NCBI RefSeq assembly: GCF_000711695.1
Contig: NW_013547015.1
Span: 62,001 to 126,000, forward strand
Length of the DNA: 64,000 nucleotides
Direction of reading: 5' to 3'
Source: Tilletiaria anomala UBC 951
Lineage: Eukaryota > Basidiomycota > Exobasidiomycetes > Georgefischeriales > Tilletiariaceae
Position numbers and translations under genes: made by a program. Under the pieces are notes generated by a model. It made no database searches, was not told where the DNA came from, and saw nothing but the letters and a program-made list of their open reading frames with translations. Position 1 is the first letter of the stretch. Each line of letters starts with the position of its first letter. Positions 33,243-39,162 of the stretch are shown here, in pieces.

Positions 33243-34187
33243 CTTTTCCGGCCTGTACTATGGAGTATTCGTCTGCCAAGCGTCAGGTGGAGGGGCTGAC
33301 TGATAATGTCGGAGCTGAACGTGAAGAGCGCGGAGCCGCCTCGAGCTTTGGGCGAGCGCAACTAGCTGATCAATGCAACACTTCGTTTCAATCGGTCAAG
33401 AGGAACTTCAAGCGCAAATAATACCTGAAGACGTGCCCTTCAATGGTTCTTCTGTGCTTGCAATGTACTATAAGGACGGTAGAATGTGTGCAATACAAAT
33501 CCAGGGAGAAACGATCGACGTCTGGACAAGCTGCGACGACGATACCTGACGCTTCACACCGCAAAGTGCTGGGAGCAGCGGGAATTGCATTCGAGGGTTG
33601 TGTGTTGCATAGTGTGCGCCGTGATGGGGTGGGGCGCTGGGCGCCGGGGTTCCTTGTGGCTTAGGCACTGTTAACCGCGCTGCCCTGCCCGCCCCGCCCA
33701 GCCGCCCCAAGCGCTCAGGAGAGGCGCTGCCGTAGCGCTGCTAAATTCGGGGACCATTCTCGCTCATGGCTAGTTATTCGGCTTACTTACCGAGAGCGCG
33801 CCCTCTTCTCAGTCGAGGTGGAGAAGCAATGGAGCAAGGTATTATCGACACTCCATCAATTCATCAAATGCGTGGCCGCGACATGTAGAAGCATATACAA
33901 TGACTGGGAGGCTTTCGCACAGTTGACAACCGTGAGGGCTGTTAGCCCGAGCAACTGCGGACGCAGCCTCAACCTGGCAGGTATAAAGCCTTAGAATGCC
34001 CTCTGCTGAGCCGGGCGTGACAGCCTCTGCGGCTGCGAAGACCTTTACTTGTGTCGTATTCTTCGGACAAGCCTCTTGCAAGGCTCAATGGCTGCACGCG
34101 AGAAAGCGGGCGCCAGCGCAATGGATGCGCCTATCCGGACGGGAAAGAGAAGCTGCGTATGCGGAATAAATCAGCAGGTTTTGGGCG
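33243..34187. other. Intergenic, no supported gene
   Basis: 0.95 kb upstream of the CaM-kinase start and downstream of the SerRS fusion. It includes a GC-rich palindrome-prone tract near 33685-33730. No coding is supported. Confidence 0.5.
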
Positions 34188-36623
34188 TCAGGTCTCCTGC
34201 AACAAAGTGGCATATGGGGATTCGGAACTACTCGCCTTGATAATGACGTAAGCAGCAACTGCGTCTGCAAAGGCACCGGCCAGTACTTTGCTGGCCCCTG
34301 CTCCCGTTGCTTGATCCTCGTCGGTTGGCGCAACATCCTTCTGGAAGCCAAAGTACCCTTTTCGTCGTCCATACTTCTCCGCACGTTTCATGCCCTCGTC
34401 CAGCCAATCCTGCAATTTCGCTGTCAGCCAGAAGTGCTGTACTGGTTCGGCAGCGCCGCTTCCAAAGGTGGCCTTGTCTACAGCGTCTGTGTCGAGTTGC
34501 ATGAGGCCGGGAAAGAGCCAATGGAGCACTGTCGCGCCTATCCCGAGAAAAGAAAAGAAATAGAATAGCACCACCAATGGCAACACGGCTGTCAATTCGT
34601 GGAGGATGAGGAGTGCCATCACCAGGCTGGCGGGATCGGTCCCAGTACGCTCAGCAAGAGCACGAACATGAGTAATGGCAGACCTGATGGGAGATTCCTT
34701 TGGCTTGTGCGAGGAAGCGCTGTATGAGCGCCTTGGTATTCGCGGGATCTCGCGTGCTTGAAGGGGGGCGGCGTATGGCAGGTTGCCAATAAACGGTCGC
34801 GCACCGATGCGCCCAAAGTACGGCTGCAATGGCCCTGGCAGCCACTCGACATTTAAATCTGCCTCTCCTCCTAACCAGAACTTCCGAAGGCAAATTGGGA
34901 GGCGCAACCTGCCACCTTCTGCTCTCCCGTAATTCTCGAGCAGTGCCACGACGAGTCTTGGGATCGCAGCGGCTGTCCCGTTGAGAGTGTGCGCAAAGTC
35001 TGCCTTGCCATCGCTGTTGCGCGTCTTGTGCTTGATGTGCAGGCGACGGGACTGGTGGTCGGTGCAGTTGGAAGCAGAGCTGATCTCACCCCAGCTTCCG
35101 CGTCCTGGCATCCAAGCTTCGATGTCGTACTTGCGGTATGCGCTCGCGCCGAGCTCCTCAGATGGCATGTTGAGCACGCGATATGGGATTCCGAGCGAGC
35201 TGATGATATGTTCTTGCAAGCTTCGAAGCTCCTCTAGTATCTCGTCTGACTGTGAGGCATTGCAGACGACAAAGAGCTCGGCCTTTGCGAATTGGTGTAC
35301 GCGATAAAGACCGCGCGTGTCGGCGCCACGGGCACCGGCTTCGGCACGGAACGAGTGAGACAATGCCACGACCCGCAGCGGTAGCTGCTGCTGGCTCAAT
35401 GACGAGGATCCGGAAGATTGCGCTGTAGTCTCTGTCGCGCTCGATGATTTTCCCGTTTGCAGAGGCGCGGGGAAAGTGCGGCCGGCTAGCAAGGCGGCGA
35501 TCGAGATTTCAGCCGTACCCACGAGGCACAGCTCCTCTCCAGAAGAATCTGTACGGCTCGTACTGACAAAGTACGTCTGACTCGCCTGCTCGTCTCGAGG
35601 GTTGAAGCCGCAGCGTGCCGCAATGTCCGTCTTGACCACCTCAGGCGGCGAGACAAGCACGAAGCCGCGATCGCAAGCTGTGGCCAATGCGTATTGAGCA
35701 ATGGCGTGCTCGAGCATGGCGATGGTTCCGAGTAAAAAGGGCCATGATGACCCAGTGGAGACGACACCGGAGCGCAGATCAATGCCACCGTGGCCACCTA
35801 CAACGCCGTCCGCGACAGCCAGGTGGTCGGGCGCGGTGTCTCTCTCGATGGGGGAGGGATCTGCCTCCGCGATGGTTGCATTCATATGTTTGTCGAAGCC
35901 TTTGGGTAGCAGATGCGCAGGCCCTCCAATACCTACGATACGAGCATTCGGCTCAGGTCCTCGCGGCGTGTCACGATGGGTTCGATTTGGCAGTCGAAGT
36001 CGGAGCTCGAGGCTGCGTGCCAGCAGCTCTTCTTGTTCCTTTGCCATTTCCTTTCCTTCTTTCCTTGCATCAGCTGCTTCACTCTGCGCCTGTTGTAAGG
36101 TCATTTCTAGCGTGACCTCTTCTTTGTCCGCCTCCTTGCTGTCTGCCTGCTCTTTCGCTCGCATCTGCAAAGCCCGCACTGCCAAACCAAGTGTCTTTTG
36201 CTTGGCCGAAACAGCCGCATGGCGCTCCTGCAGGAGCTTGGAGCGCTGTCGCAGGTACCGAAGCTCCTCGAAATCTTCTGGTCGGAATGCAGCTTTGCGC
36301 AGTGCCACTTCCTCCGCCGCGGCAAGTAGGTCGGGCTCGTTCCAGGACCAGTTTGTGCCTGGTACAGGAAGCCGCGGCGGCCCGGCGCCTGCAGGAGTGT
36401 TACAGCCCATGTTGTCGTCGGCCTTACTGGCATATAGCCGGCGCTGACCCACGGGCTTTGCCCGGTTCGTTGACGAAACGGTCCTGCATTGGCAGACACA
36501 TGCTTGAGCAGTCGGAGGCCGCAACGTGGAAGGGGTGGAAGATCCGAGGTGGTTCCAAGAGCCAAGTCGTCGCGACGGCCGAGCTTCGGCGCGAAGAAGG
36601 TCAGACAGGCTTCGGAGAGCCAT
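34188..36623 (-). CDS. DIA4: Mitochondrial seryl-tRNA synthetase fused to DUF1279/FAM210-like domain
   Basis: One uninterrupted frame of 811 aa from the ATG at 36623 (MALRSLSDLLRAEARPSRRL, a presequence-like start). An in-frame upstream extension to 36761 is hydrophobic and less likely. Residues about 100-240 are the tRNA-binding coiled-coil arm of class II SerRS (FEELRYLRQRSKLLQERHAA). The catalytic core carries RGFVLVSPPEVVKTDI, LVGTAEISIAALLAG (motif 2 vicinity), SHSFRAEAGARGADTRGLYR and motif 3 (AIPRLVVALLENYG). SerRS proteins normally end soon after a final IPxxL segment. Here the frame continues through an Arg/Ser-rich linker (IPRIPRRSYSASSHKPKES) into a DUF1279/FAM210-type membrane domain (LVMALLILHELTAVLPLVVL) and a C-terminal tail (GYFGFQKD, AYVIIKASSSE). 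The linker resembles the mitochondrial presequence of the free-standing second protein. It acts in the mitochondrion, charging tRNA-Ser, possibly tethered to the membrane. Confidence 0.85.
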   Translation of the reverse strand: MALRSLSDLLRAEARPSRRLGSWNHLGSSTPSTLRPPTAQACVCQCRTVSSTNRAKPVGQRRLYASKADDNMGCNTPAGAGPPRLPVPGTNWSWNEPDLLAAAEEVALRKAAFRPEDFEELRYLRQRSKLLQERHAAVSAKQKTLGLAVRALQMRAKEQADSKEADKEEVTLEMTLQQAQSEAADARKEGKEMAKEQEELLARSLELRLRLPNRTHRDTPRGPEPNARIVGIGGPAHLLPKGFDKHMNATIAEADPSPIERDTAPDHLAVADGVVGGHGGIDLRSGVVSTGSSWPFLLGTIAMLEHAIAQYALATACDRGFVLVSPPEVVKTDIAARCGFNPRDEQASQTYFVSTSRTDSSGEELCLVGTAEISIAALLAGRTFPAPLQTGKSSSATETTAQSSGSSSLSQQQLPLRVVALSHSFRAEAGARGADTRGLYRVHQFAKAELFVVCNASQSDEILEELRSLQEHIISSLGIPYRVLNMPSEELGASAYRKYDIEAWMPGRGSWGEISSASNCTDHQSRRLHIKHKTRNSDGKADFAHTLNGTAAAIPRLVVALLENYGRAEGGRLRLPICLRKFWLGGEADLNVEWLPGPLQPYFGRIGARPFIGNLPYAAPLQAREIPRIPRRSYSASSHKPKESPIRSAITHVRALAERTGTDPASLVMALLILHELTAVLPLVVLFYFFSFLGIGATVLHWLFPGLMQLDTDAVDKATFGSGAAEPVQHFWLTAKLQDWLDEGMKRAEKYGRRKGYFGFQKDVAPTDEDQATGAGASKVLAGAFADAVAAYVIIKASSSESPYATLLQET

Positions 36624-36925: not shown

Positions 36926-39162
36926 CTATCCTCGCACCCGCGCCAGCGCCCGAGGGAACGTGAACCAATCCTCGAGGGCGCCTCTCCCTCTGGAGGCAAC
37001 GCCTTTCTTGACGCCATGCATGATCTGCGAAGCGTGCGATCCGCCGAAGCTGAAACCAAAGCCGCCACCGCTAATACCGCTGCCGGTACTGGTAACGGCG
37101 CCGTGCTGGTGGCCCATGTACACCCACGCGAGCACCACGACAGCCGAGAGCAGGAGCAGCGTCGTGCGATCCCCAAGCGCGCTTGCGAAGTCGTTCAGCT
37201 TGTCGCTCTTTCCTTTGCTGTATGGTGATGATGATGACGATGCTGATGGCGAAAACGTCGAGGGATGAGATGTGAATTTTGGAACGTTCGAACGCAGCTC
37301 GGTGAAGATGACCGGTAGCAGGACGACGCAAGCAGTGTAGAAGACTACGGCGCTCTTCACAAGTAGTGCTGGGTATTCGAGCAAAGAGGGCTTGGCCTTG
37401 CTCCCATTCGCAGCCGTCCGCTCGTTGGTGAACAGACACCAGATCGAGTACAGCGCGACGGAGAAGAAATGATAGACGAGCAGTAAAGGCTGTGGTGCGA
37501 GGCCCGAGAGCAAACGCACCGGCCCACCGACGCATTCGCCGCCGAGTTCAAAGTACTTGAAGCAACCCTCTCGAAGGACTTCAAGGTTCTCGTCTGTATG
37601 AACCGGATAGCGAAGTGTCAGCAAATGCAAACTTGGTCTATTCACGTGTGGGCTCAGTGAGCGTACCACTCACCATCAGCTCCAAAGAGGCTGTATAGCG
37701 CCTGTGCGAGAATGTTGATAACGCTCGCGAGTCCCTTGCGATTCCAGTGCCAAGCGCGAAGCGCTGGCCTGACCTGAGCGTCCCACTGGTCGAGTTTAAT
37801 CACCGCAGCCTGCGTTGTGGAAACAGCGTCGCCTTCAGAGGGGGGCCACTTCCCACCCCCAAGGGCGTTCGTGAGATGTACCACGTCCCAAAGGCCTACG
37901 GACATGCCGCCTGTAGATGAAAGGAAGATATATCTTTCGTGTCAGCTGTCAAGTCTGGGCGAACGGAATACAGGAAGCGACTCACCGCCTGTGAGAGGAT
38001 GCCGCATGTTCATGGCGTCGCCAACGACAATGACACCCTTCCTGTCGCTCCGCTGTCCTTGCATGCTTGGCGGCAAGAAGCTGTTCGGCATGCTCCGCAA
38101 CCGTTGCTTCTGCGCGTCGAGCTCAGCAAGTAGGTTCGCGCCCAGCGGTGTCGGTGCCGATGGCTTCGCCTGCTGCGGCCGATCTACGGCATGTGACGGA
38201 GTGTCAGGAAGGTAAGGCACGACATTATCGCGGATGTGCTTCTGCAGCTCGCCTTTGGCGGCGCTGGGGAGCTTCTCGCCGGGCACGTCGATGAGAATGC
38301 GCGTCATGGTGCTCGAAATCTGGTAGAGAAGGATCGGGCCCGATGGTGCAAGGACAACGTGCCCGTGCTTGGGCGCAGGCAGTGGGGCGTGTTCCAGCTC
38401 CAGGCCTACGAAGTTGGAGCGCACGATTGGTGCGATGGACGATCCGAATTGCCGGCGGAACTTGCTGAAGCAGCCGTCAGCAACGATGGTAATGGAGGCA
38501 CGCAGCTCCAATGCCTCGTCGCTGTTTGCACCAGCTTCTCTCACTTCTTCCGGCGAGTGTTGCGGTAGCTTGCGCGTGGCAGAGACGCCAACGATCTTAT
38601 TGCCGTCGGCAACGAGGTCCCTGACGGTCGCCTCAATAAGCGTGACGTTCTGTTGCGCCGATGCGAGAGTCCTGAGCGCCTGGACAAAGTTTCCGTGGTG
38701 GAAGCTGCGTCCCTCGACTTTGCCGCTGGCGCTCTCGATATGTTTGCCCTTGTCGTAGGCGAGTGCGCCGGCCTGGGCAGGGTAAGGGATGGGCACACTG
38801 CGCGGGCCATAGAAGACTTGGTAACCTTCAACGGGGATGGCGTCGATGTCGCGCAGTGCGTCCTGCAAACCGAGCATGCTGAGCGCCATGACGCCGCCTG
38901 GCTGCAGCAGCTCGCCGACGATGCGATCTGGGTGGGAGAGGTCGCGCTCGAGCAGGGCCACGCGCCGACCGGAGCGGGCGAGCGCAGAGGCGAGAGCGGA
39001 GCCGACGACGCCAGCACCAACAACGATCATATCGTAACATTGCGTGGAGAGCGCTTCACTAGAAGCCTGCGTCGGCATGACGGCGAAATGTGCGCTACCT
39101 ACGCCGTTGTGGCTGCTGCCTGAGGCAGCCGCCCGATTGCTGACGCTGGTCGAGGCAGTCAT
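36926..39162 (-). CDS. ERG1: Squalene epoxidase (monooxygenase)
   Basis: This ER-membrane FAD enzyme converts squalene to 2,3-oxidosqualene, an oxygen-requiring step of ergosterol synthesis. Exons 39162-37986, 37910-37674 and 37593-36926 give 693 aa. The N-terminal FAD dinucleotide fold is DMIVVGAGVVGSALASALAR, followed by VALLERDLSHPDRIVGELLQ (family-diagnostic), the DG-type motif IVADGCFSKFRR, and GVIVVGDAMNMRHPLTGGGM, whose last Gly residues span intron 1. The C-terminal half has ECVGGPVRLLSGLAPQPLLL and membrane helices. It is much longer than most fungal Erg1 (about 480-500 aa). The extra length is an Ala/Ser-rich N-terminus, a loop near HAVDRPQQAKPSAP, and a roughly 110-residue tail with a Ser run, another helix (LLLLSAVVVLAWVYMG) and a Gly/Phe-rich tract. 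Confidence 0.96.

What the first reader, a model, noticed from the sequence alone, without database searches (positions are those of the whole stretch)
34188..36623. Seryl-tRNA synthetase and DUF1279/FAM210-like membrane protein in one frame
The synthetase core ends normally near FWLGGEADLNVEW, but the frame then runs without a stop through an Arg/Ser linker resembling a mitochondrial presequence (IPRIPRRSYSASSHKP) into a two-domain membrane segment. A fusion would tether tRNA-Ser charging to a mitochondrial membrane, or give a polyprotein cut at the internal presequence-like site. FAM210 proteins are linked to mitochondrial translation, so the partnership makes sense.
Basis: partly seen in the sequence, partly recalled or inferred. 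Interest (0 to 1): 0.75.

Follow-up and report, generated by a model that had tools for sequence, protein, structure and literature searches.

The report
Mitochondrial SerRS fused to membrane protein
In smut fungi and their yeast-like relatives, the enzyme that loads serine onto mitochondrial tRNA is encoded as one continuous protein with a likely inner-membrane protein; some species carry a cutting-type signal between the two halves and others do not, so some may hold the enzyme permanently on the membrane.

Summary
The fusion is real. On the minus strand, one gene of Tilletiaria anomala (36623..34045, 831 aa, two exons) joins a mitochondrial-type seryl-tRNA synthetase to a membrane domain. 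The membrane domain is FLILHELTA (PF10306), not DUF1279/FAM210, but profile comparison makes it a distant relative of FAM210. A true FAM210 gene lies elsewhere, and this is the only FLILHELTA found in the genome. The fusion occurs in 73 of the 80 best-scoring homologues, including 27 named smut-lineage species; the other 7 (five Tilletia, two metagenomic) and rows 81-120 lack it. The linker is mostly disordered and has no Met. In Tilletiaria and three relatives it carries a presequence-type cleavage site; such sites recur at a near-constant distance from the membrane domain in 12 of 24 long linkers. Linkers of 14 Ustilaginomycetes are 12-40 aa, with no site at that place. Best reading: one precursor, probably cut by MPP in Tilletiaria and left uncut in Ustilaginomycetes, which would be a membrane-tethered mitochondrial synthetase. 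Import, cleavage and localisation are inferred, not shown.

The parts
34045..36623 (-). Whole gene: mitochondrial-type SerRS-FLILHELTA fusion, 831 aa, two exons (36623..34236 and 34152..34045)
   Evidence: splicing of the window gives the deposited protein P0001 letter for letter
36432..36623 (-). Presumed N-terminal presequence (residues 1-64), with cleavage-type site RLY/AS at residues 62-66
   Evidence: Disordered in the model (pLDDT under 50 for residues 1-78); site listed; targeting itself inferred
34842..36356 (-). Seryl-tRNA synthetase (about residues 90-594), coiled-coil arm plus class II core
   Evidence: TIGR00414 308.3 bits (cut-off 301.65); best solved relatives are mammalian mitochondrial SerRS 1wle, 7tzb
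34929..35399 (-). Class II synthetase core match (PF00587, residues 409-565)
   Evidence: 104.8 bits, cut-off 29.3; many residues of this part are nearly invariant in the 40-row alignment A4
34692..34841 (-). Linker (residues 595-644), no Met, mostly predicted disordered
   Evidence: pLDDT under 50 for residues 601-642; sequence
34713..34730 (-). Internal presequence-type cleavage site RSYSAS (residues 632-637), predicted cut RSY/SAS
   Evidence: 26 residues before the conserved GTD; counterparts at 22-28 residues in 12 of 24 long linkers
34236..34691 (-). FLILHELTA domain, exon-1 part: first helix, TM1 with LLILHELTA, middle helices, most of TM2
   Evidence: PF10306 52.7 bits, residues 654-760; helices and hydropathy
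34587..34613 (-). LLILHELTA signature (residues 671-679)
   Evidence: L40-H41-E42 and A45 invariant in the ten rows of A1
34153..34235 (-). Intron of 83 nt, GC-AG
   Evidence: read-through after the same Lys is seen in fused relatives and in stand-alone P0127 and P0130
34045..34152 (-). Last exon: LLFPVRIGASIALAPAFSR... C-terminal helix, 35 aa plus stop; the part most like FAM210

Best explanation
One gene makes one precursor. Its N-terminal presequence brings it to the mitochondrion; the first part is a mitochondrial SerRS that charges mitochondrial tRNA-Ser; the second is an inner-membrane protein, probably with two membrane helices, of the FLILHELTA family, a distant cousin of FAM210. In Tilletiaria and its order the precursor is most likely cut once more, by MPP (with Icp55 or Oct1 trimming), at the presequence-like site in the linker (RSY/SAS), giving a matrix SerRS and a separate membrane protein in equal supply. 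In Ustilaginomycetes, Exobasidiales and some Malassezia, where the linker is short or the site missing, the same fusion probably stays uncut and holds SerRS at the inner membrane, where mitoribosomes work. Shown: fusion, families, distribution, site pattern, intron. Inferred: import, topology, cleavage, tethering.
For: Fusion in 73 of the 80 best homologues, 27 of them from named smut-lineage species, against 0 of rows 81-120. Only FLILHELTA copy found in the genome; a second, separate SerRS sits on contig C63. Linker disordered between two confident parts. Cleavage-type sites: 12 of 24 long linkers have one 22-28 residues before GTD, shuffled mean 0.36, maximum 5 in 5000; with two textbook patterns 17 of 24, expected 4.5, maximum 12 in 2000; a similar motif 19 times in 2,599 linker residues against 6 times in 30,276 residues of the SerRS part. 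Sites by clade: Georgefischeriales 4 of 4, Ceraceosorus 1 of 1, Microstromatales-like 3 of 5, Malassezia 10 of 22, Ustilaginomycetes 0 of 14, Exobasidiales-like 0 of 11. Precedents: S. pombe Rsm22-Cox11 and yeast Arg5,6.
Against: Motifs are not cleavage. The loose motif and the 22-28 window were set after seeing the linkers; the shuffles treat related linkers as independent; Tilletiaria's RSYSAS fits neither strict textbook pattern. Only 7 of 67 fused proteins show a like motif within their first 90 residues (many models may start late), and none of 4 stand-alone proteins shows the loose motif at its N-terminus, though P0130 has the near-miss RSFSRS, so the linker as a relic of the partner's presequence is a guess. 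The fusion is kept where the site is lost, so cutting cannot be essential everywhere. Five Tilletia SerRSs and P0005, P0019 are not fused. No transcript or protein data were available.
Confidence: 0.5

Rival explanations
1. Uncut tether also in Tilletiaria: the mature protein remains one chain, and the linker is only a flexible spacer.
For: Fusion is kept in lineages where the site is gone, including Pseudozyma flocculosa with a 12-residue linker; FAM210A, a remote relative, binds EF-Tu and supports mitochondrial translation (PMC7863409, passages), so co-location makes sense.
Against: Site-like motifs are far denser in linkers than in the rest of the protein and in half of the long linkers keep a set distance to the domain, as expected of a used site.
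Confidence: 0.38
2. Fusion without functional meaning (compatible with either form above): two mitochondrial precursors were joined once and stay joined by inertia, each half working as before.
For: Site state changes 8 times among 57 fused rows with the fusion kept, so either form is tolerated; Tilletia lives without the fusion.
Against: 58 of 65 ingroup rows of the tree are fused, with 3 changes of fusion state on the whole tree; both partners would belong to mitochondrial translation if FLILHELTA acts like FAM210.
Confidence: 0.3
3. Gene-model artefact: two adjacent genes read as one.
For: Automatic gene calls merge neighbours; two Malassezia models (P0038, P0042) run on into a biotin-protein ligase (P0038).
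Against: In the window the join is an unspliced open frame without a Met between SerRS and TM1; the same join is in 73 listed proteins of several sources, with linkers as short as 12 residues.
Confidence: 0.03

Closest known systems
Rsm22-Cox11 of Schizosaccharomyces pombe and Arg5,6 of Saccharomyces cerevisiae (mitochondrial tandem proteins cut inside after import; passages read in PMC12375894 and PMC8847149)
   Same: One precursor; in Rsm22-Cox11 a matrix, translation-related part first and an inner-membrane part second; in Arg5,6 MPP makes the inner cut.
   Different: Other partners; here several lineages seem to lack the cutting site and keep the fusion. Cleavage not tested here.
Membrane-anchored aminoacyl-tRNA synthetases of cyanobacteria with the CAAD domain (passages read in PMC4893482)
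   Same: A catalytic synthetase joined to a domain with two transmembrane helices; [quoted passage not shown]
   Different: Other synthetases (Val, Glu, Ile, Leu), other anchor domain, thylakoid rather than mitochondrial membrane; our scan names FLILHELTA and no CAAD.
Stand-alone FLILHELTA proteins of other fungi (P0123, P0124, P0131-P0134 from Agaricomycetes, P0129 from Verruconis; classes recalled)
   Same: Same domain and signature; unnamed stand-alone P0127 and P0130 show an apparent intron at the same Lys.
   Different: 170-215 aa, no synthetase. I recall that yeast Mrx11/YPL041C, a mitoribosome-associated protein, belongs here; no call confirmed it (listings only).
FAM210A/B (PF06916), in Tilletiaria at G000:C83:42274-42735
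   Same: Two hydrophobic stretches and a C-terminal K-x-LLPVR-like stretch; profile score 55.2.
   Different: Below the FAM210 cut-off (13.8 against 26 bits); separate gene.

Membership tests
Serine--tRNA ligase (TIGR00414 / mitochondrial SerRS) | Whole-protein match above the curated cut-off | tested here: met
   308.3 bits, cut-off 301.65
Serine--tRNA ligase (TIGR00414 / mitochondrial SerRS) | Closest to mitochondrial rather than cytosolic SerRS | tested here: met
   First five solved sequences are mitochondrial SerRSs (1wle named so); first seven structural matches likewise; a second SerRS gene is on C63
Serine--tRNA ligase (TIGR00414 / mitochondrial SerRS) | Charges tRNA-Ser in mitochondria | not testable with these tools
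   Needs an assay; core residues are nearly invariant in A4
FLILHELTA (PF10306) | Pfam match above gathering score and L-H-E-L-T-A signature | tested here: met
   52.7 bits, cut-off 25; LLILHELTA at 671-679
FAM210A/B (PF06916, DUF1279) | Pfam match above gathering score | tested here: not met
FAM210A/B (PF06916, DUF1279) | Common ancestry at profile level | tested here: met
   hhalign 55.2, probability 93.8 over 158 columns; 84 window-ORF controls up to 21.1; reversed 13.7. With the ten fused rows alone only 35 C-terminal columns aligned, probability 65.4. One FAM210 sequence only was used
Mitochondrial tandem precursor cut by MPP | One open frame encodes both parts | tested here: met
Mitochondrial tandem precursor cut by MPP | Internal presequence and cleavage site | tested here: inconclusive
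   RSYSAS at the shared position, but it fits neither strict pattern
Mitochondrial tandem precursor cut by MPP | Two mature products | not testable with these tools
   Needs protein data
CAAD-anchored synthetase | CAAD domain | tested here: not met
   Pfam scans up to E=1 list no such domain; FLILHELTA instead
CAAD-anchored synthetase | Synthetase held on a membrane in the mature state | not testable with these tools
   Inferred from architecture only

The most novel reading that the evidence does not exclude
In Ustilaginomycetes, Exobasidiales and some Malassezia the fusion stays uncut: a mitochondrial SerRS is bolted to the inner membrane by a domain of FAM210 kinship and feeds Ser-tRNA to membrane-bound mitoribosomes. 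It would be a membrane-anchored synthetase outside cyanobacteria, with sister lineages that cut the same precursor as a natural control.
Probability: 0.45. Interest if true: 0.78.

Novelty: new variant of a known kind. Interest (0 to 1): 0.6.

Why it matters
[quoted passage not shown] Here a fungal subphylum has joined a mitochondrial synthetase to a membrane protein and kept the join, with and without a cutting-type site. That offers a natural test of whether placing a synthetase at the membrane-bound mitoribosome matters. By the usual logic of gene fusions it also ties the little-studied FLILHELTA family, and through it FAM210, to mitochondrial tRNA charging and translation.

Full report
What is in the window. 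On the minus strand an open frame runs from ATG at 36623 to a stop ending at 34188, 811 codons. The deposited protein of the same locus, P0001 from Tilletiaria anomala UBC 951 (Georgefischeriales, Ustilaginomycotina), is 831 aa. It follows the frame for 796 residues and then uses an 83-nt GC-AG intron (34235..34153) and a last exon 34152..34045; splicing the window this way gives P0001 exactly.

What the two halves are. The first part matches serine--tRNA ligase above the curated cut-off (308.3 against 301.65 bits), and its nearest solved relatives are mammalian mitochondrial SerRSs by sequence and by structure of the model. A second SerRS gene, presumably cytosolic, is on contig C63. The second part is FLILHELTA, PF10306, 52.7 bits with cut-off 25, the only copy found in the genome. 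It is not FAM210/DUF1279, which is a separate gene on C83. Yet a profile of 21 FLILHELTA sequences (10 fused, 11 of the 12 stand-alone ones) aligned with that one FAM210 protein over 158 columns at score 55.2; 84 window ORFs reached at most 21.1 and the reversed protein 13.7. The ten fused rows alone aligned only 35 C-terminal columns, probability 65.4.

The join is old and clade-wide. The search gave 550 homologues and listed 120. Of these 120, 73 carry both Pfam domains: 73 of the first 80 rows, the seven exceptions being five Tilletia proteins and the metagenomic P0005 and P0019, and none of rows 81-120. I count 27 named species of Ustilaginomycotina among the fused ones (taxonomy looked up for four of them; the rest recalled), plus one entry labelled as a fern that is probably fungal contamination. 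On a SerRS-core tree of 74 rows (65 of the first 80, 9 of the other 40) fusion state changes three times, twice without P0005 and P0019. Placing Tilletia outside all others is not rejected (p 0.379), while one fusion without loss is rejected (p 6e-5), I think because P0005 and P0019 nest beside Tilletiaria. Those two may be fissions or truncated gene calls.

The linker. In the model of the full protein (mean pLDDT 79.4, pTM 0.66) the SerRS and FLILHELTA parts are mostly confident, and residues 601-642 fall under pLDDT 50, like the N-terminal 78 residues. The linker holds no Met, so an independent start in frame would have to begin inside TM1. I measured 72 of the 73 linkers from the SerRS end to the conserved GTD; P0065 escaped the pattern. 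Forty-eight are under 45 residues and 24 are longer. With two textbook patterns (Icp55 RX[FYIL][SA][ST], given for plants and called much like yeast's in PMC8847149; Oct1 RX[FLI]XX[STG], recalled), 17 of 24 long linkers match, expected 4.5 and at most 12 in 2000 shuffles; of the short ones 2 of 48, expected 6.0. Tilletiaria's own RSYSAS matches only a looser form, R-x-[FLYI]-[SHAT]-[STA], chosen after looking. With that form 12 of 24 long linkers have a site 22-28 residues before GTD, shuffled mean 0.36 and maximum 5 in 5000; of 28 sites 12 fall in that window, expected 3.4. The window too was set after looking, and related linkers are not independent. A similar form occurs 19 times in 2,599 linker residues, 6 times in 30,276 residues of the SerRS part beyond residue 100, and once in 11,920 residues of the membrane part (67 proteins). 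At the N-terminus the same protein has RLYAS at 62-66, but in a first scan only 7 of 67 fused proteins had a like motif in their first 90 residues.

By clade: Georgefischeriales 4 of 4 with a site 20-52 residues before GTD, Ceraceosorus 1 of 1, Microstromatales-like 3 of 5, Malassezia 10 of 22, Exobasidiales-like 0 of 11, Ustilaginomycetes 0 of 14; 8 changes of site state over 57 rows. Clade names for unnamed metagenomic rows follow their place in the tree. The shortest linker, 12 residues, is in Pseudozyma flocculosa, which leaves no room for a presequence.

How it arose. Stand-alone FLILHELTA proteins exist in Agaricomycetes and an ascomycete. Two unnamed stand-alone proteins, P0127 and P0130, appear to read through an intron after the same Lys at which Tilletiaria splices, as do several fused gene calls such as P0002, P0071 and P0072; this is read from protein only. 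That supports joining at the DNA level of a FLILHELTA gene with its intron. Whether the linker is that gene's old presequence is open: P0130 has RSFSRS in front of the domain, but none of the 4 stand-alone proteins checked matches even the loose motif at its N-terminus.

How it works. The precursor enters mitochondria by its N-terminal presequence (inferred). Where the inner site is present, MPP should cut there as in the tandem proteins Arg5,6 and, by analogy, Rsm22-Cox11 (passages in PMC8847149 and PMC12375894), releasing matrix SerRS and a membrane protein (hydrophobic windows over 668-702 and 780-798). Where it is missing, SerRS should stay on the membrane. FAM210A, the remote relative, binds mitochondrial EF-Tu through its DUF1279 domain and raises mitochondrially encoded proteins (passages in PMC7863409), so a role of FLILHELTA in translation is plausible. 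I recall yeast Mrx11 as a member found with mitoribosomes, but no call supports it.

Verdict. Real fusion; new variant of known kinds (tandem mitochondrial precursors; membrane-anchored synthetases). The striking point is that one fusion seems to be held in both a cuttable and an uncuttable form. Product state, localisation and benefit remain untested.

Noticed in passing
P0038 (Malassezia brasiliensis, 1417 aa) and P0042 (M. furfur, 1350 aa): Gene models run on from SerRS-FLILHELTA into a biotin-protein ligase (PF09825, PF03099); the close relative P0039 (737 aa) ends normally, so this may be a merged gene model (P0038).
   Followed up: partly
P0043, listed as Adiantum nelumboides: A SerRS-FLILHELTA fusion filed under a fern, with a linker closely like that of P0055 (Meira); probably fungal contamination of the fern assembly.
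   Followed up: no
P0005 and P0019 (metagenomic, 543 and 609 aa): SerRSs that nest with Tilletiaria but stop soon after the core; either a fission of the fusion or truncated gene calls.
   Followed up: partly
window 34153-34235: The gene's intron begins with GC rather than GT; read-through as V-S or V-x in several relatives suggests GT at the same position there.
   Followed up: partly
window 36926-39162, minus strand: Open frames that look like a squalene epoxidase (recalled resemblance, no search run), upstream neighbour of the fusion gene.
   Followed up: no
P0080 (Ceraceosorus guamensis): Its SerRS core has by far the longest end branch in the tree (2.25 changes per column), so this copy seems to evolve fast.
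   Followed up: no
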